A DNA stretch of 35,089 nt from Acidobacteriota bacterium (GTDB lineage: Bacteria > Acidobacteriota > Terriglobia > Terriglobales > Acidobacteriaceae). Below, in pieces: positions 4,910 through 15,220 of this stretch. The stretch lies in the NCBI GenBank assembly GCA_003225455.1, contig QIAB01000021.1:14086-49174 (forward strand), given 5' to 3'. Each line of letters begins with the position of its first letter. Position 1 is the first letter of the stretch. The notes under the pieces were generated by a model, which was not told where the DNA came from, ran no database searches, and saw only the letters and a program-made list of their open reading frames with translations. Position numbers and translations under genes: made by a program.

Positions 4910-6265
4910 TTATTTCTTCGGTTCGATGGCAATCAGACGATGACGTGCCTGCCACTCCTGATCTGGAAACTTGCCATCCGCGATTTCCAGAAAACGGTGA
5001 TAATTCTCCGCCGCCTGCTTGGTGCTGCGTAGATGGTCATACGCCGTAGCGCGAAGGAAGTAACTCAGCGGCATCTCCGACGCGAATTTTGCCCGATCGT
5101 CCAACGCCTTGATCGCGAGTTGGTAATTCTTCGTCTCGTTCGCCGCGACCGCTAAGTCCCAATACGCCGGTCCCAAGTCTGGCTTGAGTTTGATCGCCGC
5201 AATCAATACTTGCTCTGCCTCCGCAAACTTTCGCTGCTCCAGCAACGCATGCCCTAAACCCTGTTGCAACTCGGCGTCATTCGGATTTGAAGCGATCAGA
5301 GCCCGATATTGTGTCTCAGCCTGATCGTATTGTTTTGCGCCACTGTAAAGATCAGCGAGATCGCGCTGCGCCGCCGCATCCTTAGAATCAAGCTTCAACG
5401 CGCTTTGCAATTCGGCGATTGCACTGTCGTTCTGGCCATCGGCAGCCAGCATGCGGCCAAGTTGCATGTGCACGCTGGCGTCGTTCGGGCGCAACGCCAC
5501 TAATTGCCGCAGAACGCCCTCCGCATCGCTGAACCGATGCCCACGCATATAAAGATTGGCCAGCGCCGCCAGAGCATCACTTGATGACGGATCGATCATT
5601 CGCGCTTTCTTAAATTCCTCCTCCGCGTCAGCAAAGTGATTCTGCTTCTCAAGCAACGCGCCTGCCGCTAGGTGCGGCTCCGGATCCTTCGGCTGAAGGG
5701 GAGCCGCCTGCCGGTAAGCGTCGATGGCCTCATCAGGTTTCGTGGTTTCAATCACCTGTGCAAGCGATACCCATGCGCGGGCTCGTCCCTCGGTTTCACT
5801 TGCCGTCGGCTTCAATTTCGTGGCAGCGCGCAGAAACTGCTCCGCATCCGGTTGCCCGGCCCGCGCAAGCATCAATCCAAGGTTGAGATTTGATTCAAAG
5901 ACGTCAGACTTCGCCGTAACTGACTGGCGATACGCCCCAATCGACTCGTCGCTCTTGCCCACTGCATTGTAGAGAAATCCCAGATCAAACCAGGCCGCGT
6001 AATTCTTCGGATCGCGATCCACTACCTTTTTCAACAACGGCTCGGCGGTCACGTAATCTTTTTTCTCGATCGCCGATTCCGCCTGCAAAAGCTCAGGCGG
6101 CGAAGATGGATCCTCGACTGCGATTTTGTGATGGCGCACAGCTTTGCCAGTCTGGGCGACGGAAATCCCCTGCGTAATTGCCAGGCAAAAAACCACGGCG
6201 AGGCACGGCCCACGTAGCCTCGGACGCCATCGTCCTCGGGCCGCATCACCGCTATTTCCGCCCAT
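4910..6265 (-). CDS. Exported TPR-repeat protein
   Basis: The protein has 451 residues. It has a signal peptide (about residues 13-38, ending GISVAQ) and then at least nine tetratricopeptide repeats over most of its length. They show the typical pattern, for example NYAAWFDLGFLYNAVGKSDESIGAYRQ (quoted only as two halves: NYAAWFDLGFLYN, then AVGKSDESIGAYR). TPR arrays are protein-protein scaffolds; the partner here is unknown. I chose the ATG at 6265, 9 bases after GGAGCG; an ATG at 6286 would overlap uvrA by 35 bases instead of 14. The overlap with the uvrA stop suggests co-transcription from uvrA. Two small secreted proteins follow directly and may work with it in the periplasm. Confidence 0.8.
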   Translation of the reverse strand: MGGNSGDAARGRWRPRLRGPCLAVVFCLAITQGISVAQTGKAVRHHKIAVEDPSSPPELLQAESAIEKKDYVTAEPLLKKVVDRDPKNYAAWFDLGFLYNAVGKSDESIGAYRQSVTAKSDVFESNLNLGLMLARAGQPDAEQFLRAATKLKPTASETEGRARAWVSLAQVIETTKPDEAIDAYRQAAPLQPKDPEPHLAAGALLEKQNHFADAEEEFKKARMIDPSSSDALAALANLYMRGHRFSDAEGVLRQLVALRPNDASVHMQLGRMLAADGQNDSAIAELQSALKLDSKDAAAQRDLADLYSGAKQYDQAETQYRALIASNPNDAELQQGLGHALLEQRKFAEAEQVLIAAIKLKPDLGPAYWDLAVAANETKNYQLAIKALDDRAKFASEMPLSYFLRATAYDHLRSTKQAAENYHRFLEIADGKFPDQEWQARHRLIAIEPKK

Positions 6266-9215
6266 TGCCACGCGCTCCATTCCCATTCAACACGCGCGCC
6301 AGAAATTTCCCCGTATACGAATTCGGTAGCTTGGCTATGGCTTCCGGCGGCCCGGACCCGATCACATAGCCGCCTCTCTCGCCACCCTCTGGCCCTAAAT
6401 CGATTACCCAATCCGCCGTCTTGATTACTTCCAGATTATGCTCGATCACCAGGATCGAGCCTCCTGCATCAATTAGACGGCGGAAGGCGGAGAGTAGTTT
6501 ACTTACGTCATCGAAGTGCAGGCCCGTTGTCGGTTCGTCGAAGATATACAACGTGCGATTCCGCCGGCGCTGGCCGTCGCTCGGCGGGCGCCCCAAGCCG
6601 CGCGATGCAGGCTGAAGATGCGCCGCCAGCTTCATGCGCTGTGCCTCGCCGCCTGAGAGCGTGGTTGCCGACTGTCCCAGCCGCAAATATCCCAATCCCA
6701 CTTCTTCCAGCACTCGCAATTTCTCACCAATTTTCGGCGCGCTGGCAAAAAAACCGAGCGCCTCTTTGACAGTCAAATTCAAAACTTCGTGAATATTCTT
6801 TCCGCGGTAGCGCACCTCCAGCACCTGCGGCTTGTACCGGGTGCCTTTGCACTCTTCGCAGATCAGCTCGACGTCGGCGAGAAACTGCATTTCCACCGTG
6901 ACCGTCCCGTCGCCTTGGCACACTTCGCATCGGCCGCCCGGTACGTTGAATGAGAAATGCCCCGTCGTCAGGCCGCGTTTCTTCGCCTCCGGAAGTGAGG
7001 CAAACAGCTCACGAATTCCGTCGAACGCCTTGATGTACGTGACCGGATTCGATCTTGGCGTCCGCCCAATCGGCGACTGGTCTACGAGAATCGCTTGATC
7101 GATGAACTCCGCGCCCTCCAGTCGATCCCAGCATGGAGCGGCAGGTGCCACGCCGTTGGTTTGCTTTTTCGCCGCCGCCAACGCCTGATACAGCACATCA
7201 TGCAACAGCGTCGATTTTCCCGATCCTGAAACCCCCGTGATCGCGACAATCATCCCCAGCGGAATGCTGAGATCCACATCTTTCAAATTGTGCGCGTGAG
7301 CGCCGTAGATTTTGATCTGTTGCGGTCCCGGCTTACGGCGCACAGTCGGCATCTGGATTCGCAGCTCATTGGCAAGATAGCGCCCCGTAAGTGACCCGGG
7401 ATTCTTGCGAATTTCCTCATAATTTCCGACGGCGATCACTTTGCCGCCGCTCTCTCCCGCACCAGGGCCGAGATCAAGAATGCGGTCCGAGGCACGCATC
7501 ACGTCGGGATCGTGCTCCACCACCAGAATCGTATTTCCCAGATCGCGGAGGTCATGAAGAATGTTGATCAGCCGATGAGTGTCCCGGCTGTGCAGGCCAA
7601 TCGAAGGCTCATCGAGAACATAAAGCGTTCCCACCAGCCGTGACCCGAGCGAAGTCGCAAGTTGTATGCGCTGCGCTTCTCCGCCCGAGAGCGTCGACGA
7701 CAGCCGATCCAGCGTCAGGTATTCCAAGCCGACCTCGTTCAAGAAACGCAGCCGCTCGCGAATTTCGAGAAGAAGCTTGTCTGCAATCCCAGCCTCTTGT
7801 TCCGTCAGTTGCACCTCATCAAAGAACTTGGCCGCGTCTTCCACCGTCATGCAGCAGACTTGGCAGATGTTTCTGCCGTTAATCTTTACTTGTTGTGCCT
7901 CCGTGCGCAGGCGCAATCCGTTGCAGCTCGAGCAGACTGAGTATCCGCGATACCGGCTAAGAAACACCCGCACGTGCAGCTTGTACTTTTTGCGTTCGAG
8001 ATGATTAAAGAAGCCGCGGACGCCGGGAAATCGACCTTCCCCGTCGATCACAAGTCCCTGCTGCTCGGCATCCAGCTCCGCCCACGGCACATCGAGCGGC
8101 AGATCAGCCTGCTTCGCGAAACGCTTCAGTTCGGTGAAGAGCGGCTTGTATTTCGGCTTGGTCCACGGCTCGATTGCGCCTTCGTTCAGTGTTTTCGAAG
8201 GATCAGGAATCACCAAATTCAGATCGAAATCAATCGTGTTGCCGAATCCCTGGCACCGCGGGCACGCGCCATAAGGATTGTTGAAAGAGAACAGCCGCGG
8301 CTCCGGTTCTTCATACCGAATATTGCATCGTTTGCACTCGAACCGCTGCGAAAACCGCAATCGCTGCGGCAATTCGCCTTCGTGCGCAGTTTCAAAGATC
8401 ACTTCGCCCGATTCGCGATAGCCGATCTCCACCGCATCAACAATCCGCGCCCGAGAATCCGATGAAACCACTAACCGATCCACCAGCAGAAAAACCGGCT
8501 CCGCAAAGTTCACATCGAGCAACGACTCCGGAGTAGAAAACTCGAAGATCTGCCCATTCTGATAAAGCCGATTGAAGCCCCGCTTGCGCAGCTCGAAAAG
8601 CCGCGCCTTGAGTTGATCGTCGACCGTAGCGCCGGCATCCTGCCGGCTGTCACGCGGGCGTCTCGCCCGCCTTCTGGAAGCCTTTTCGACGTAGGCGCGG
8701 GCATCTCGCCCAGTCTTCGATGTAGGCGCGGGCGTCTCGCCCGTGCGCAGCGGAAACAGCACGTTCAACCGCGTGCCTTCGCCTAAACCAAGCACTACCG
8801 CGGCAACTTCGTCTACGGTGTCTTTCTTCACTTCATTGCCGCATTGAAGGCAATACGTGCGCCCAATTCGCGCAAACAGAAGACGCAGGTAATCGTAGAT
8901 CTCAGTTGCTGTCGCTACGGTCGATCGCGGATTGCGCGTCGTATTCTTCTGCCGGATCGCCACCGCCGGAGCGATCCCATCAATCACATCCGCATCCGGC
9001 TTTTCGATTCGCTCCAGAAATTGCCGCGCATACGCCGACAACGATTCCACATACCGCCGCTGTCCCTCGGCATAAATCGTGTCGAAAGCAAGTGAAGACT
9101 TGCCTGACCCCGAAACGCCGGTGACCACCGTCAGCGAATTGTGCGGGATTTCAAAATCAATGTTCTTGAGGTTGTGAACCCGCGCCCCGCGAACAACAAT
9201 GGTTTCCGTAGACAT
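6252..9215 (-). CDS. uvrA: Excinuclease ABC subunit A
   Basis: UvrA is the damage-recognition ATPase of nucleotide excision repair and acts with UvrB in the cytoplasm. The 987 residues hold both ABC modules. Walker A motifs GVSGSGKS lie at about 33-40 and 661-668, signature motifs LSGGEAQR at about 509-516 and 853-860, and Walker B motifs as [10 protein letters not shown] and [10 protein letters not shown]. Zinc-module cysteines are present ([22 protein letters not shown]). The protein is about 45 residues longer than E. coli UvrA. Residues about 158-199 are an in-frame translation of a palindromic repeat cluster, and about 868-886 are a second Arg/Pro-rich insert between the signature and Walker B of the second module. 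Neither breaks a motif, so the protein may still work. ATG start at 9215. Confidence 0.95.
6558..6614 (-). other. Extra Arg/Pro/Gly-rich segment inside uvrA
   Basis: Typical UvrA proteins have only a few residues between the second signature motif region (MKLAA) and the second Walker B strand (TLYI-DEP). Here about 19 residues lie there ([18 protein letters not shown]). The DNA is GC-rich with GGCGC and GCGCC arms. This may be another short repeat insertion, but the evidence is weaker than for 8631-8743. Confidence 0.45.
8631..8743. repeat. Cluster of four palindromic repeats inside uvrA
   Basis: Hairpin 1 is GCCGGCATCCTGCCGGC (8631-8647), a perfect 7-bp stem with a 3-base loop. Hairpin 2 is GCGGGCGTCTCGCCCGC (8654-8670), also a perfect 7-bp stem. 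Two further copies follow as 31-bp tandem units starting TTCGA(C/T)GTAGGCG, at 8685 and 8716, each with the core GCGGGC(A/G)TCTCGCCC. All are in frame with uvrA and add about 40 residues rich in Arg, Ala, Thr and Pro. A related two-hairpin copy lies at 22100-22139. Confidence 0.8.
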
Positions 9216-9432
9216 CGAGAAAGGCCCCGCCCGTTACAGCCTTCTAAGGCCTTTGTAGGGCCTTTTCGCGCCGCCAGGCCATCAGGCGGCTTCAGAAAGG
9301 CAGGGGAATCTTCTTATTATAAAGCAGAGTGGTTTTGCTCAATTGAAGGGGATAGGGTAGTGATGCAAGTTTCGGCCACCAATTCGTCCATAACATAACT
9401 ATCGTTTGATAACGCGAAGGAGCAAAGACTAT
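9216..9432. promoter_or_regulatory. Divergent intergenic region with a uvrA promoter and a hairpin leader
   Basis: On the minus strand, TTGAGC (9342-9337), 15 bases, and TATAAT (9321-9316) form a plausible uvrA promoter with a perfect -10. The resulting leader of about 100 bases contains a GCCGCC/GGCGGC hairpin (9270-9290) and GGCCC/GGGCC arms (about 9224-9262). No T-run follows. For the plus gene, AAGGAG lies 10 bases before the ATG at 9433. I see no clear LexA-type box. Confidence 0.5.
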
Positions 9433-9906
9433 ATGCAAAAAATCACCCCATTCTTGTGGTTCGATGGAAAAGCTGAAGAGGCAGCGAATTTTTATACCTC
9501 CATTTTCAAGAATTCAAAGGTTGGACGCATTACTCGTTATGGTGAAGCAGGTCCCGGACCGAAGGGAACGGCAATGTCCGCGACATTCCAGCTCGAGGGA
9601 CAAGAATTCATGGCCTTAAACGGCGGTCCGCAATTCAAATTCACGGAGGCCATCTCATTCTTCGTGAACTGCGAGACGCAGGAAGGAGTAGACGAGCTGT
9701 GGGAGAAGCTATCCGCGGGCGGAGAAAAAGGAAGATGTGGCTGGCTCAAAGACAAGTTTGGGCTGTCGTGGCAAATTATCCCATCTGCTTTAGGCCAGAT
9801 GTTGGGCGACAAGGACCCTGAGAAATCGAAGAGAGTCATGCAGGCAATGCTTCAGATGAACAAAATTGATATTAGAGTTTTAAAGCAAGCATACGAGCAA
9901 CGATAG
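9433..9906 (+). CDS. PhnB/YjdN-like VOC-superfamily protein
   Basis: The protein has 157 residues of the type often annotated as 3-demethylubiquinone-9 3-methyltransferase-like or PhnB-like. The opening [16 protein letters not shown] and the later segment [18 protein letters not shown] are hallmarks of this family. The fold is a vicinal oxygen chelate (glyoxalase-like) fold. The family's enzymatic role is not established; the methyltransferase name is a database inheritance. The ATG at 9433 is preferred to an upstream ATG at 9406, because AAGGAG sits 10 bases before it and homology starts there. It is convergent with the EthD-VOC gene. Confidence 0.88.
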
Positions 9907-9960
9907 CGGATCGCATCGCTGCCGAATCTGCTTCTTGTGAAGGGTGAGATTCCACGCATC

Positions 9961-10698
9961 TCAACCGCCTTCGCCCAGGGGTTTGCCGATTTCCCAATGG
10001 TGTCCGAACGGATCGAGAATTCGTCCGACGCGCCAACCATACGGCTGATCCTCGACGGGCCGTACCACGCTGGCGCCAGCCGCCACGGCCCGTTCGAAAG
10101 CGGCATCCGGATCGTCCACCACCATCACCATCCGCACTGTGCCGCCGCCCAGTGACTCAGGGCTGAAATTCAAGTGCTCCGGAGACTCGTCCGCCACCCA
10201 AAACTCGGATTTCCCCACCGCCAGCTGCGCGACCACTCCTCTACCCTCGTCGCCGATGCGGAACAATTCCCGAGCTCCAAACGCAGCTTTGTAGAACTCA
10301 ACCGCCCTCGCCCCGTTTCGCACCGAGAGCATGGGCGCTATGGACGTTTTCTGTTCCTTCGAGGTCTGCGAGTCGTGCAATATTGTGCGCTCGTCAGAGA
10401 CGAAGTAAGCCACTTTGCTGTGGTCAATGAAGTTCGCCTCGTCCTCGGTTGACGATTTCCATTCGGGCGATTGACGAGCCGCCAGCAGGGCCTCCACATC
10501 GTCAAACCACAGTTCTGCCATGCCATCGTAATCGGGCCGGTGTTTGTCTCCGGAGACGGTCAAGCGATGGCTTTGCACCAACTTGCGGAGCCCAGGAATC
10601 CGAGCTCCGATCGGGCCGTGGGTCTTTTCCCAATAACGAAAGAATTCCTCATCCGTCAAGCCCGCCTTCTTGGTGACACAATAAACAAGTTTGACCAT
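9961..10698 (-). CDS. EthD-domain and VOC-domain fusion protein
   Basis: The protein has 245 residues. Residues 1 to about 105 resemble the EthD domain (KLVYCVTKKAGLTDEEFFRY, then WEKTHGP), a small dimeric alpha-beta barrel family. From about 115 to the end is a PhnB-like VOC domain (APMLSVRNGARAVEFYKAAF, and near the end DPFGHHWEIG). Both domain types are common in small soil-bacterial enzymes or binding proteins; no reaction can be named. I prefer the ATG at 10698, with AGGTG close by, to a TTG at 10713. It is convergent with the PhnB-like gene and is transcribed away from the defence-like region at 10.75-14.0 kb. Confidence 0.8.
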   Translation of the reverse strand: MVKLVYCVTKKAGLTDEEFFRYWEKTHGPIGARIPGLRKLVQSHRLTVSGDKHRPDYDGMAELWFDDVEALLAARQSPEWKSSTEDEANFIDHSKVAYFVSDERTILHDSQTSKEQKTSIAPMLSVRNGARAVEFYKAAFGARELFRIGDEGRGVVAQLAVGKSEFWVADESPEHLNFSPESLGGGTVRMVMVVDDPDAAFERAVAAGASVVRPVEDQPYGWRVGRILDPFGHHWEIGKPLGEGG

Positions 10699-10749
10699 GC
10701 TCACCTGCGACAAGTGATCGAGCGCACTTTTTTGAAAAAATTGTAGCTC

Positions 10750-10945
10750 TTGCGCGTGTGTAACCAGAGTTCGCGGCTGAAATATCTTCGGGCCGTGCTG
10801 GAGGATGATGACGAGCCAAGCGTGCTCCTGATCGCTCTGTGCCGCATTGCGAAGCGCGAGGAGGCATTGCCAAGGATTGTCAGGGCATGCTTCTCTACGC
10901 CGAACAAATTACTATGGACTTCGGAGTGCATTTGCAATGTCATTA
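10750..10945 (+). pseudogene. Decayed HigA-like addiction-module antidote
   Basis: Reading frame 1 gives LKYLRAVLEDDDEPSVLLI followed by ALCRIAKRE. This resembles the start of the 'probable addiction module antidote' family (typically YL-xx-L-E-D-D, then AL-xx-IA). The reading then seems to move to another frame at about 10,860, giving GGIAKDCQGMLLYAE and then DFGVHLQC. That fits the family's helix-turn-helix (G-x-IAK-xx-G-xxx-LY) and its ending (LGLxLxA). The N-terminus is missing, a frameshift is needed and no toxin gene is adjacent. It is best read as a remnant. The resemblance is by eye only. Confidence 0.4.
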
Positions 10946-11477
10946 CAACACGGACGCGAGATAACTTCCGACCACGTTGAACTAATTATCGGCCGTGAAT
11001 TTCCAATTAAGCGCTTCGTTTCACTCTGCAACTCACTCATATGGGCGACGAGTCGTTCGCACGGACTGGCACAAACCTCATTTACCGAACGTGTATTTGT
11101 CCGAGACAATGGTGTCGATGCCGAATGGTCGGTTGAACGACCCGGAGATTTGCCACAAGGCGCTCTTATAGGCAAAGGCTGGAATGTCTTCCAATACAAG
11201 CAACGCGATGTAACTGGGGCGGATCGTCAGCAGATCATTGCAAACCTGCGGCGGGAACTGCGGGGTGCAGCGCGTGAGGTGTTTGCAGGAACTGGCAATC
11301 GTCCCAACCATTACTCTCTGTTCCAATGTAGACCTCACGCATGATGACAAGGCGAATCTCGCCGCCGCCGTCCAAGAGGGGTTCGATCATCCCCTCGAGG
11401 TCACAATAAGGGGAGCGGCGGAAATGGCCGCAGCACTGAATCAGCCGCTGCTGCCGTCGGAGAAGCCCTCAGAGTGA
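10937..11477 (+). pseudogene. PDDEXK/Mrr-like nuclease-domain protein, frameshifted
   Basis: The ATG at 10937, 10 bases after GGAG, opens a frame with RDNGVDAEW and, 25 residues after the Asp, FQYKQRD. This D...QxK pattern fits Mrr-type PDDEXK nuclease domains. The frame ends at 11344, but similarity to the usual continuation (HYSLF-NVDLTHDD) runs on in the next frame from about 11,322 to the stop at 11477. Removing one C in the TTCC at 11321-11324 would restore one protein of about 180 residues. It then overlaps the GTG start of the next gene (GTGA). In relatives as I recall them, this domain is followed directly by an NTPase in the same protein; here none follows. It may be a true frameshift, a consensus error, or a decayed defence gene. 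Confidence 0.6.
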
Positions 11478-14038
11478 GCGGTGCAAAGTTCCTCGACCAA
11501 GTGGGCGACGAGTTGGAGGCGAGGGCTAGGAATCTGTTAGGTAACAATGGACTGCAAATCATTCGGCTATTGAGCGTTATGACTGCCGTTGGAATAAACG
11601 GAGTTGTTGCTCGAGAATTACGAACCATCTGCGACATTTTCGGCGCTGTTACTCCTAACGATGTCCTCTCGAACATCAACCCATTAACAAGATCCGGTCT
11701 GATTAGGCGCGTGGGTAATTATCTCGAGGTTGTACCCCCCGTGCTTGCAAACCGCGCCGCGACGCTGGCCCTGGCTGGTCGAGAGAGGGAACTTAGCGCG
11801 TTGCTTTCAGCACTGCCTGCGGAAGGCCGTGCTCGCCTGCTACGCCGCATCCAGCAGTTGCCTGGAGAGACAATTGAGGTTTTTATTGCAGAGCTTTTTC
11901 AGCATGGGCAACTCCGGGATTTTAGGACCGCTTTGGAGGACGTTCAGCTCCTGCGTTTGCTCGCACCTGCCGCTCCGGTGGAGACGGCGAACCTGCTAGA
12001 AGTCGGGCTTTCGAACTTGTCGCGCGAGGAGCGTTTGCAGCTGAGCGCCGGTATAAGGCGCGATCTTGTCTGGACCATTGAGGAACTACTGTTTAGGGCC
12101 GAAACAAGCGCAGCCGCCATGCGTTGTCTTAGGTTGTTGGCGGAGGCGGAGACTGAGACCTACAGCAATAATGCCACCCATATTTTTGAAGAGTGCTTCT
12201 ATCCGCTCCATCCTCAGTTGCCGTTAACACTGCATGACCGGCTGGTAGCGGTGCGCGAATTGGCGGCCGCTGACGCGACGAAGCAATCAAAAATGATGGC
12301 AATTAGGGCTGGCGCGAGCGCGTTTAATAACAATCGCGTGGGTTACCTGCGGCGAAGTGAGGGTTCGGAACCCTTTGATGCAGTCCCCAGAATGACATAT
12401 GGGGAAATTCATGACTACCTTCAAGCCGTTCTCGATGAACTCCGGCAACTTATGAGGGATGAAGATGTTGAGGTCAACACAAAGGCTGGCGCAGCTTTCG
12501 TTCATGCTCTGGGTGAGTTCACAATTCGCGCGCGCGTAGACATAGGAATCAAGATGCTGGAGGAAATTTCGTCCCCGATCACATCCCATAGCTTACCAAT
12601 CCGAGTCGAGGACTATGTGGATGCCCTACACCTTGCCCATCGAGGCCTTTCTGCCCAGCAGCCGCATTTCGACAAGGAGCTTGCACACGTTTCCAAGCTA
12701 ATTGAGGCAATAGAGGTCGGTACTTTTGACACTCGGGTGCGACGTTGGGTCGGAACATGGGACTACGGGGAACAAGAATCCGACGAAAACGGGCAGCTCG
12801 CTTACCACGGCCAGCTAGAAATTCGAAAATTGGCAATGGCGGCAGCCGCCGACGCCACTGTGATCTCCGAGGACACACTTCGATGGCTGAACACGAGGGA
12901 TGCAAAGAGGGCCTCCGAGTTTTTCTTCTGGTTAGGGCGATATGATGAAACGGGCCGTTGGGAGGAGCGCGTCGATCGAACTGGGGAAATGTGTGACGGC
13001 GAATTGGCCTTCGCCTGCTATTACGGCGGCCGCGGGCAGACAAGCGCGGCACGAGTTGAGGAAAAATTGGACGACTTACTGCCGTCCGGGCGAGTACGAG
13101 TTGAGGCCCTCCTTGGTGCAACCAGTTATCTTCCCGGTAGCGGCTGTGCAGTCAGAAGAATCCTAGCCCTATTGGAGCGAGGGCTTAGCCCGAAGCTAGC
13201 CGAGAGCCGCCTCATGGCCGGGGGTTGGATGAAACCTCTCGATATTGCGGAGGCGGCAACTCTGCTGAGGGCTATCGCAGGCCCAAGACTTGAGAATGCG
13301 GTCGAGGTGATTGACTTCCTTGCGATGTGGATCCACGCCGAAAAGCCTTTAGATGGTGATCTGGCAGAATTGGCTTGGCAAGCCCTGGAATCGGCGCCGA
13401 AAGGCGGAGAAGCCTGGGATTTTGATCTCGTCGCCGCAGCCCTCGCTCCCGGCGACCCGGATCGCGCATTCGCCCTACTCGAGCGACTGCTCACGCTTCC
13501 AAGCGATGTTAAGAGCTGGGAGCCACTAGACCGGCATGGCGGAAACAGATTCTGGAGCGCGCTATGGAGCGGGGATCGCCAGCGCTCGTTGGAGCTCCTA
13601 TTTAACGTTGGAACATCATCTCCCCTGATGGCCTGGCGGATATCTTGGCACGTTCCGGACATCTTGAACCTTGAGGCGGATCGAGACTTTCTGCGTGAAT
13701 TTGCACGAAAAGATGTGCGTAGTGGCGAGTTCGTCTCGTCTTGTTTAATGGGCGGCCGACCCGGATTTTGGCCTATTGCTCTAGATTTGCTATCGCTGTA
13801 TCCAGACAACAAGATACTGCGCAGAAACATTGCCGTCGCAGCTAGCCATATGAACCAGACAATTGTGGGTCCGATGTCAGAGCACTACATCAGGTGTGCG
13901 GTAGCCGTAGAAGAAGTTCTCAATTCTGAGAACGTGCCGGGCACGACGCGACCTTTCTTGAGAGAGTTGGCAGCGAATCTCAGGAAGGAAGCGCAGAGTG
14001 AGCACCGGGATGAAGAAGACGAGTCTGTAAATTGGTGA
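11474..14038 (+). CDS. Large helical-repeat protein, like the C-terminal part of a STAND NTPase
   Basis: The protein has 854 residues from a GTG start at 11474, with GGAG 11 bases upstream. The N-terminal 100 residues look like the helical and winged-helix region that normally follows a STAND/AAA NTPase core (LLSVMTAVGINGVVARELR, then LIRRVGNYLEVVPPVLANR). The rest is a long array of helical repeats, with WVGTWDYG and FFFWLGRYDETGRW as distinctive segments. No Walker A or B motif is present, so it cannot be a complete NTPase. The upstream overlapping gene supplies a PDDEXK-like domain. The two together look like the ends of an Avs/STAND-type defence protein with the NTPase removed. The helical part would be the sensor in such systems. 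Function is inference; the gene itself is long and intact. Confidence 0.75.
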   Translation: MSGAKFLDQVGDELEARARNLLGNNGLQIIRLLSVMTAVGINGVVARELRTICDIFGAVTPNDVLSNINPLTRSGLIRRVGNYLEVVPPVLANRAATLALAGRERELSALLSALPAEGRARLLRRIQQLPGETIEVFIAELFQHGQLRDFRTALEDVQLLRLLAPAAPVETANLLEVGLSNLSREERLQLSAGIRRDLVWTIEELLFRAETSAAAMRCLRLLAEAETETYSNNATHIFEECFYPLHPQLPLTLHDRLVAVRELAAADATKQSKMMAIRAGASAFNNNRVGYLRRSEGSEPFDAVPRMTYGEIHDYLQAVLDELRQLMRDEDVEVNTKAGAAFVHALGEFTIRARVDIGIKMLEEISSPITSHSLPIRVEDYVDALHLAHRGLSAQQPHFDKELAHVSKLIEAIEVGTFDTRVRRWVGTWDYGEQESDENGQLAYHGQLEIRKLAMAAAADATVISEDTLRWLNTRDAKRASEFFFWLGRYDETGRWEERVDRTGEMCDGELAFACYYGGRGQTSAARVEEKLDDLLPSGRVRVEALLGATSYLPGSGCAVRRILALLERGLSPKLAESRLMAGGWMKPLDIAEAATLLRAIAGPRLENAVEVIDFLAMWIHAEKPLDGDLAELAWQALESAPKGGEAWDFDLVAAALAPGDPDRAFALLERLLTLPSDVKSWEPLDRHGGNRFWSALWSGDRQRSLELLFNVGTSSPLMAWRISWHVPDILNLEADRDFLREFARKDVRSGEFVSSCLMGGRPGFWPIALDLLSLYPDNKILRRNIAVAASHMNQTIVGPMSEHYIRCAVAVEEVLNSENVPGTTRPFLRELAANLRKEAQSEHRDEEDESVNW

Positions 14039-14219
14039 AGTCATCGGGTGGGCGACTAGGCCGCTTTCGGTTCTACTTTAGTTTTGCCTCCTGTGCACGC
14101 TCGGACGCCCGAGACCCCTTCCATTATGCCTCGTTCGGTCACCCAACCACTTGCGACCGCTCGCCCAAATCGTGAATCTATCGATAGCAGTGCACCCGCT
14201 CTCTCTCCGGAGGACCCAC

Positions 14220-14576
14220 ATGAAGCTCAATCACCTGAACCTGACCGTCTCCAATGTTCTGGAAACGCATCGCTTCCTGGAAAAGCATTTCGGTCTGAAG
14301 GGGTACGGAACGCTGGCGCCGAGTGAAGCCATGAGTTTCCTCTCCGATGACAACGGACTGGTTCTGGCGCTATTCCGCGTGGCGAAAGGGACCGAGGTGA
14401 AGTATCCGCCGGGTTTTCACGTCGGCTTTATTCAGGAGAGCGAGGAGCAGGTCAACCAGATCAACCAACGTTTGCGGGAGGATGGGTTCAAGGTCCCCAA
14501 GCCCGCCCGACTGCACGGTTCGTGGACTTTCTACTTCCAGTCGCCGGGAGGATTCAAGATCGAAGTAGTTTGCTAG
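14220..14576 (+). CDS. Glyoxalase/VOC-family protein
   Basis: The protein has 118 residues and is a single VOC-fold unit. It starts KLNHLNLTVSNV, with His5 as a likely metal ligand, and ends GGFKIEVVC, with a Glu near the C-terminus as the typical last ligand. Central residues include FHVGF. Such proteins bind a divalent metal and act as lyases, dioxygenases or resistance proteins; the substrate is unknown. The ATG at 14220 has GGAGGA 5 bases upstream; longer readings of the frame lack a ribosome-binding site. It lies alone between the helical-repeat gene and the convergent oxidase operon. Confidence 0.85.
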   Translation: MKLNHLNLTVSNVLETHRFLEKHFGLKGYGTLAPSEAMSFLSDDNGLVLALFRVAKGTEVKYPPGFHVGFIQESEEQVNQINQRLREDGFKVPKPARLHGSWTFYFQSPGGFKIEVVC

Positions 14577-14636
14577 CGCGGCATCATCCTGTCGGCGTCA
14601 CACGCCAGGGCAATCTAAGGAGCCGGCCAAAGACCG

Positions 14637-14885
14637 TCAATATGCATCGTCTTCTGACTGCTGTTCCTCATCCCGCTTCTTTCCATACCGAAATGCCATG
14701 CCGACGCCCACGGTCATGAATCCAACCGGCGGCACCAGCAAAAGCAGCACGCCGCGGTTGATCGCGCGCTGGCCTTCTTTCGTCGTACCGGCTGCGCTGC
14801 TGTAACACATTGCGCAGCCTTGCGAGAAGGCAGGCGCCGCCCAGAGCAGCAACATCAGACCCATCGTGGCCAATCGCAGCTTCAT
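14637..14885 (-). CDS. Small membrane protein of the cytochrome oxidase operon (CAMCY motif)
   Basis: The protein has 82 residues. It has a signal-like N-terminus ending APAFSQ, then CAMCY, a two-Cys motif just after the likely cleavage site. One transmembrane helix follows (about residues 47-65), and the tail is charged. The ATG at 14885 overlaps the stop of the subunit IV gene (ATGA), so it is the last gene of the oxidase operon. The paired Cys and the position suggest a role in oxidase assembly or copper/haem handling, but that is inference. I recognise no named family. Confidence 0.75.
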
Positions 14886-15220
14886 CTCGCTCCCAACGAC
14901 AGAATGCGGAACGCGTCCGGAAAGAAAATACACATGAGCGACAAGCAGACCAGCAGGGAAGACATCGTCAGCCACTTCATCCGCGAGATCTCAAACTTCA
15001 TATGCATAAAATAGGCGATGATCAGGCCGGCCTTCAACAGCGACAGCCCCATCAGCATGCTCAGCATCCGCACCGGTTCCATGTTCTGATAGCCAAGATA
15101 AACTTCCATGCCGGTCATCACCAGCAGCGCGCCCCATACCCAGAAAAATTGCGCTTTGCCATGATGCCGATGCTGTTCTGCCACTCCCTGCTCTAGTGCT
15201 AATTGAGTCGCATCATTCAC
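14882..15220 (-). CDS. Cytochrome c oxidase subunit IV
   Basis: The protein has 112 residues and three predicted transmembrane helices (about 28-46, 55-76 and 84-104). The segment [11 protein letters not shown] in the second helix region is characteristic of the prokaryotic COX4/CtaF-type subunit. It is a small structural subunit of the haem-copper oxidase in the inner membrane. It lies 4 bases downstream of the subunit III gene and overlaps the next small gene by 4 bases. The order subunit II, I, III-like, III, IV supports the call. Confidence 0.87.

What the first reader, a model, noticed from the sequence alone, without database searches (positions are those of the whole stretch)
10937..14038. 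A nuclease-domain gene and a helical-repeat gene that look like a STAND/Avs-type defence protein without its NTPase
The upstream gene has a D...QxK (PDDEXK/Mrr-like) domain and a region that, in proteins I recall, leads straight into a P-loop NTPase. The downstream gene begins with the winged-helix/helical region that normally follows such an NTPase, then a long helical-repeat array. No Walker A or B motif is visible in either, and the genes overlap by 4 bases (GTGA). Either the NTPase was lost by a deletion and the locus is decaying, or this is a two-gene system that works without ATPase, which would be new. The visible frameshift favours decay, but the intact 854-residue frame argues the second gene is under selection.
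Basis: partly seen in the sequence, partly recalled or inferred. Interest (0 to 1): 0.68.

Follow-up and report, generated by a model that had tools for sequence, protein, structure and literature searches.

The report
Broken remnant of a nuclease-STAND gene
The two neighbouring reading frames are pieces of one large, probably phage-defence gene that has lost its ATPase middle, its tail and its reading frame, so this looks like ordinary decay rather than a new ATPase-free system.

Summary
In detail: a D...QxK nuclease-like piece (ATG 10937), no P-loop, a GTGA overlap at 11474-11477, and an open 854-codon frame modelled as a winged helix plus helical solenoid (pLDDT 84). The best explanation is decay of one ancestral gene. 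Its four closest homologs are single 1300-1311-aa frames with nuclease motif, P-loop NTPase, solenoid and a C-terminal tail. Against the closest, L022, the window keeps aa 1-130 in one frame (to 11323), aa 131-173 in another (to 11444) and about aa 373-1247 back in the first. The 199-201 aa between, which hold the NTPase, are gone, and so are the last 64 or so. Homology begins ten codons upstream of the GTG 'start', in its frame (1 of 15,320 random windows scores as high), so the GTG is an old internal codon. Of 26 distinct homologous genes examined, 24 carry Walker A in the matched frame, one in an adjacent frame, one is cut by a contig end. The nearest named family is PD-Lambda-4_A, not Avs. 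Whether the 854-codon piece is still used cannot be decided here. Low interest.

The parts
10937..11323 (+). Segment 1: N-terminal nuclease-like domain (D...QxK), matches aa 1-130 of the Nitrospinae homolog L022; its frame stops at 11342-11344
   Evidence: tblastn, 42% identity, E 6e-33; frames
11322..11444 (+). Segment 2: rest of the nuclease domain in another reading frame (SNVDLTHDD...GAAEMAAALNQ), matches aa 131-173 of L022
   Evidence: tblastn with L022, frames, end of the match
11323..11325 (+). Frameshift between segments 1 and 2 (position approximate)
   Evidence: change of frame in the alignments to L022; no long homopolymer there
11440..11446 (+). Deletion joint: 199-201 aa holding the NTPase, present in four of four close homologs, are missing here and the frame changes
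11444..14035 (+). Segment 3: winged helix and helical solenoid, back in the frame of segment 1; matches about aa 373-1247 of L022
   Evidence: tblastn 37% identity, E 0.0; model pLDDT 84.2
11474..14038 (+). Open 854-codon frame; its GTG aligns inside the homologs, ten codons downstream of the joint
14033..14038 (+). Early stop: 64 (L022) to 67 (L002) C-terminal residues are missing; the tail is present in four of four close homologs and no remnant was found up to 15000
9216..14636 (.). Stretch between uvrA and the small gene before the cox cluster, 5.4 kb here (three genes with VOC/EthD-type Pfam domains plus the remnant); 0.2-2.4 kb in nine relatives, none with a match to the remnant or the three genes

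Best explanation
One ancestral gene for a protein of about 1300 aa (PDDEXK-like nuclease, STAND-type P-loop NTPase, winged helix, alpha-solenoid, C-terminal tail) has decayed in place through at least three lesions: a frameshift at about 11323, a deletion of about 600 bp at about 11444 that removed the NTPase and changed the frame, and loss of the C-terminal tail at about 14036. The intact ancestor most likely worked as other nuclease-STAND proteins are thought to: the solenoid senses a phage product, the NTPase oligomerises the protein, and the nuclease is switched on (recalled for the kind, inferred here, not shown). The present locus cannot make that machine, because the nuclease domain is split over two frames and the NTPase is absent; it is most likely a non-functional remnant.
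For: Full-length homologs in single frames with Walker A: L002 (=L021), L003 (=L023), L004, L022. Three-segment match of the window to L022. The ten codons before the GTG (AAAAVGEALR) score 88 summed over the four homologs (20, 27, 35 and 6), the other two frames score below zero against each; 1 of 15,320 random stop-free windows (of 20,000 drawn) scores as high; further upstream the similarity stops, apart from one shared G. Missing block 199, 199, 201 and 199 aa in four of four. C-terminal tail absent, no remnant by tblastn or by eye. Walker A in the matched frame in 24 of 26 distinct genes, adjacent frame in 1, contig cut in 1. No relocated NTPase in the own genome: best match covers 41 profile positions of a kinase-like protein. 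A second broken copy in the same taxonomic family, G575, with an open close relative, G560.
Against: Segment 3 is open over 864 codons and keeps coding-like GC by codon position (0.645/0.447/0.572). It keeps 75 of 108 columns invariant in the other four (10 of the 33 misses are gaps), against 75/92, 75/90, 75/106 and 75/126 for the intact ones, so it is not clearly more eroded. GGAG at 11459-11462, 11 bases before the GTG, could serve translation. In L022's alignment the match runs ten residues further upstream than the joint through a chance-like SGGN, over DNA that in the other frame codes the better-matching GAAEMAAALNQ. No read data were available to exclude an error at the frameshift.
Confidence: 0.9

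Rival explanations
1. The 854-codon frame is a retained gene: after the deletion the solenoid part is translated from the GTG and kept by selection, for example as a sensor-only or interfering protein, while the nuclease part is dead. (This overlaps with the best explanation, so the odds are not exclusive.)
For: Open over 854 codons, coding-like codon composition, conserved columns largely kept, GGAG before the GTG.
Against: Three random lesions leave a longest piece this long in 16% (of 1311 codons) or 4% (of the 1112 left) of simulations, and the piece was picked because it is the longest. It lacks the C-terminal tail. None of the 26 genes examined shows the same form. No close relative was found to measure dN/dS.
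Confidence: 0.08
2. A working two-gene system without ATPase: nuclease protein plus solenoid protein, joined by GTGA translational coupling.
For: The GTGA overlap; the nuclease motif and the solenoid are both there.
Against: The nuclease domain is itself split over two frames; the frame that ends in GTGA does not carry D...QxK; the GTG lies inside homologous sequence; no second instance among 26 genes.
Confidence: 0.02
3. Some lesions are assembly or sequencing errors and the strain has an intact gene.
For: Draft assembly of 195 contigs; a small frameshift can be such an error; no reads available.
Against: A deletion of about 600 bp with frame change and a lost tail are hard to make by base-calling error; there is no long homopolymer at 11323.
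Confidence: 0.04

Closest known systems
PD-Lambda-4_A (PADLOC models PDLC03991, PDLC03990)
   Same: The 854-aa frame matches PDLC03991 positions 439-737 of 1283 at E 3.7e-8; the four close full-length homologs match about the same region (E 1.6e-14 to 2e-5); more distant homologs match over nearly the whole model (L034 982 bits, L045 773 bits). A table in PMC10952713 lists PD-lambda-4 under P-loop NTPase (one passage seen).
   Different: The close homologs match only the winged-helix and early solenoid part of the model, so they look like a distant branch; the window copy lacks the NTPase and the tail.
Avs (AVAST) STAND NTPases
   Same: Architecture of effector, STAND NTPase and helical sensor (recalled; the start of the abstract of PMC12931631, seen in the listing, places Avs5 in the STAND superfamily).
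   Different: No model named Avs among the PADLOC matches; no solved Avs chain listed by sequence.
Nuclease-STAND homologs in two Acidobacteria MAGs and a Nitrospinae bacterium (L021, L023, L022)
   Same: Same domain order and 30-42% identity over the retained parts.
   Different: They are single frames of 1304-1311 aa with Walker A and the C-terminal tail.

Membership tests
PD-Lambda-4_A | Match to the PADLOC profile | tested here: met
   PDLC03991, E 3.7e-8, positions 439-737 of 1283 only
PD-Lambda-4_A | Full-length protein with nuclease-like N-terminus and P-loop NTPase in one frame | tested here: not met
   NTPase block missing, nuclease part split over two frames
PD-Lambda-4_A | A partner gene of the PD-lambda-4 system, if there is one | not tested
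   No partner model was searched; the three neighbouring ORFs scanned have VOC/EthD-type Pfam domains
STAND NTPase | Walker A and B in the protein | tested here: not met
   No NTPase-profile match on this contig; G....GK[ST] present in the matched frame of 24 of 26 homologous genes; the Walker B-like IV[DE]DP of the four close homologs is my reading
STAND NTPase | Winged helix and superstructure-forming repeats after the NTPase | tested here: met
   Model of the 854 aa, pLDDT 84.2: helices with a small beta hairpin at 77-86, then helical solenoid; structural matches are generic solenoids, top Z 11.7, rmsd 13.2 over 497 residues; the name winged helix is my reading of the model
Avs (AVAST) | Match to an Avs profile | tested here: inconclusive
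   None listed at E <= 10 for the window protein or E <= 0.01 for 12 homologs; remote membership is not excluded
PDDEXK nuclease | Conserved D...[QE]xK | tested here: met
   GVDAEW...QYK in segment 1; GIDAEW, GVDAEV, GIDAEW and GIDTEW followed by QxK in the four close homologs
PDDEXK nuclease | PDDEXK fold | tested here: inconclusive
   The model of the N-terminal 380 aa of L022 has pLDDT 43.5 and was not searched; no Pfam nuclease family reached its cut-off
Two-gene ATPase-free system | Same two-gene form in other genomes | tested here: not met
   0 of 26 distinct homologous genes; one of them, G824, is cut by a contig end and says nothing

The most novel reading that the evidence does not exclude
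The 854-codon frame is translated from its new GTG and kept as an NTPase-free solenoid protein, for example one that binds a phage product or interferes with another defence protein: a domesticated fragment of a nuclease-STAND protein.
Probability: 0.06. Interest if true: 0.5.

Novelty: new member of a known kind. Interest (0 to 1): 0.12.

Why it matters
No ATPase-free two-gene defence system is needed to explain this locus. It shows how a broken nuclease-STAND gene can imitate a two-gene operon with a coupled start. Profile libraries may hold such fragments too: two PADLOC PD-Lambda-4_A models have only 943 and 468 positions and align to homologs only after, or late within, the NTPase.

Tried and rejected
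Nuclease fold by prediction: the model of L022 aa 1-380 with three rows has pLDDT 43.5 and was not searched. Solved structures by sequence: for the full-length profile three sequences at E 0.049 to 0.94 (two of splicing factor CWC25, and 2fna_A over profile positions 316-367); for the 854 aa one at E 1.4; none convincing. Fold search of the 854-aa model: the 50 rows shown by each program are mostly HEAT-type solenoids (importins, PP2A A subunit, CAND1, SF3b and the like), no entry titled as a STAND protein; this does not exclude one. Viral contigs and phage records: no relative of the 854 aa, no phage match for L034. dN/dS of the 854 frame: not computed, since the nearest homolog found is 37% identical and synonymous sites would be saturated; 398 family, 397 order, 399 class and 396 phylum genomes (own genome included, sets overlapping) gave nothing closer. 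Relocated NTPase in the own genome: rejected. Other weak PADLOC matches of homologs (PDC-S01, Cmr5, Aga_TIR-PNTD1-PNTD2, MkoA, JetD; E 0.001 to 0.005) were set aside as short or generic. Papers: PD-lambda-4 was searched; one passage of PMC10952713 and passages of PMC9519451 were seen, and the term PD-lambda-4 has no occurrence in the held main text of the latter; searches on STAND nuclease proteins and on decayed defence genes gave listings only. Plasmids: 2 records match the 854 aa; 40 records match the PD-Lambda-4-like homolog L034, I opened three of them, and one (H38, Leptospira plasmid) is a 644-aa frame covering only the C-terminal half; plasmid genes are not in the count of 26. Synteny: my first text said the gap is short in relatives; on checking six more, it varies from 0.2 to 2.4 kb.

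Full report
What is in the sequence. The frame from GTG 11474 to TGA 14038 is open for 854 codons. The frame from ATG 10937 carries GVDAEW...FQYKQRD, a D...QxK pattern, and stops at 11342-11344 after 135 codons; the frame that ends in the GTGA overlap (11474-11477) is another one, 11238-11477. So the 'upstream gene' is two frames. Pfam and NCBIfam give no match at a curated cut-off for the pieces; PADLOC gives PD-Lambda-4_A (PDLC03991) for the 854 aa, E 3.7e-8, aligned to positions 439-737 of a 1283-position model, which already suggests a missing N-terminal 400 residues.

Homologs. Eight of 396 phylum genomes have a match, the own genome included; the three best others have single frames of 1300-1323 codons. 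A scan of genome contigs gave three loci: two are the same genes as L002 and L003, the third is a Nitrospinae gene, L022, the closest relative found (37% identity over segment 3). Family, class and order searches added more distant genes (4 of 398 and 15 of 399 genomes at E <= 0.001, 3 of 397 at E <= 1e-10, own genome included), and a PDLC03990 search gave 4 of 247, one of them new. The four closest have D...QxK, a Walker A (GPHDVGKS, GQHHIGKS, GLHDAGKT, GPHNMGKT), a region aligning with the winged helix and solenoid, and a C-terminal tail.

Anatomy of the break. tblastn of these four against window 10001-15000: L022 aa 1-130 match 10937-11323; aa 131 onward match from 11322 in a different frame, with clear similarity to about 11444; then the frame of 10937 returns, from window 11414 (L022), 11447 (L002), 11444 (L003) and 11489 (L004), to 14032 with L022 and L002 (13966 with L003, 13990 with L004). 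The earlier start with L022 rests on SGGN; the same DNA in the other frame reads GAAEMAAALNQ and matches GAGELAAFLNN of L022 and GAAELAVLLND of L002, so I take SGGN as chance. Codon by codon, the ten codons before the GTG read AAAAVGEALR, against CAASLGMGLK (L022), VAASVGNKLR (L002), AAARVGEGLR (L003) and AAVLLEKDLI (L004). The BLOSUM62 scores are 20, 27, 35 and 6, sum 88; stop-free random windows have mean -34, SD 20, and 1 of 15,320 (of 20,000 drawn) reaches 88. The homolog register was set by hand from the alignment downstream. The GTG is therefore an old internal codon. The block between the last left residue and the first right residue is 199, 199, 201 and 199 aa in L022, L002, L003 and L004 and contains the P-loop region. 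The last 64 (L022) to 67 (L002) residues are missing as well, and no remnant of them is seen downstream.

Is the NTPase-less form found elsewhere? I checked 26 distinct genes (loci with G handles plus L022, redundant loci merged): Walker A lies in the matched frame in 24, in an adjacent frame in one (G575, itself frameshifted, with an open close relative in G560), and one (G824) begins at a contig end (one search counts 23 by its rule because L022's recorded match starts at its residue 3, and L022 has Walker A in that same frame). One of the 24, G984, has a frame of only 629 codons. An NTPase profile (A3) searched in the own genome hits nothing on this contig; the best hit, E 2.2e-5 over 41 positions, is a kinase-like protein with a P-loop elsewhere. 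So no sign that the NTPase moved.

Is the open frame evidence for selection? With three random lesions the longest piece is at least as long as here in 16% of simulations if measured on 1311 codons and 4% on the 1112 that remain; with two lesions 35% and 15%. Of single-base changes in the frame 3.7% would make a stop, so an open frame only bounds the age of the loss. Conserved columns: the window keeps 75 of 108 that are invariant in the other four, 10 of the misses being gaps; the intact ones keep 75 of 92, 90, 106 and 126. Its branch is 0.94 against 0.70 for L022, in a pairing with support 0.75. Codon-position GC is coding-like. These results fit a recent loss and also a retained piece; they do not decide. 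dN/dS was not computed for want of a close relative.

Structure. The 854-aa model (four rows, pLDDT 84.2, pTM 0.63) has helices with a small beta hairpin at residues 77-86, then a nearly all-helical solenoid. Matches are HEAT-type solenoids in general. The nuclease-NTPase part of L022 gave a poor model (pLDDT 43.5), so the PDDEXK reading rests on the motif only.

Setting. I fetched twelve stretches around uvrA or the cox cluster from relatives listed (six picked first, six more on checking). In nine the distance from uvrA to the small gene before the cox cluster can be measured, by alignment ends: 202, 252, 304, 363, 601, 743, 948, 1285 and 2354 bp, against 5421 in the window; in three one of the two genes had no match in the stretch (five of the nine also). 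None of the twelve has a match to the 854 aa, to L022 or to the three neighbouring genes. The window's extra stretch holds, by Pfam, a 3-dmu-9_3-mt gene, an EthD/glyoxalase gene, a glyoxalase gene and the remnant. I made no search for mobile-element genes, so how the stretch arrived is open.

Reading. The ancestor was probably a nuclease-STAND defence protein, a distant branch of PD-Lambda-4_A. That the family defends against phages, and that STAND proteins act by sensing, oligomerising and switching on an effector, is recalled from the field and from family names, not tested here. The present locus is most likely its remnant.

Noticed in passing
window 8620-8745 (inside uvrA, 6252-9215 minus): uvrA carries an in-frame stretch with two copies of a short palindromic repeat (CGGGCGTCTCGCCCGC type). 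The pattern with up to one mismatch occurs 45 times in the own genome against 1 for the reversed control.
   Followed up: partly
L024 / L061 (G575), frames at 269-1504 and 1438-4011 of L024: Another homolog in the same taxonomic family is frameshifted between NTPase and solenoid, while its close relative L025 is one open frame.
   Followed up: partly
PADLOC models PDLC03990 (943 positions) and PDLC03989 (468 positions): Two PD-Lambda-4_A models align to full-length homologs only after, or late in, the NTPase; truncated genes may have entered the library.
   Followed up: no
L058 3693-5627 (plasmid NZ_CP092667.1): An annotated 644-aa protein covers only the C-terminal half of a PD-Lambda-4-like protein, apparently another fragment.
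   Followed up: partly
window 9216-14636: 5.4 kb between uvrA and the cox cluster; nine relatives have 0.2-2.4 kb there, and none of twelve stretches holds the three VOC/EthD-type genes or the remnant.
   Followed up: partly
L049 (G000 C136): The own genome has a kinase-like protein with a P-loop, GPGGIGKT, that gives the best NTPase-profile match but over 41 positions only.
   Followed up: no
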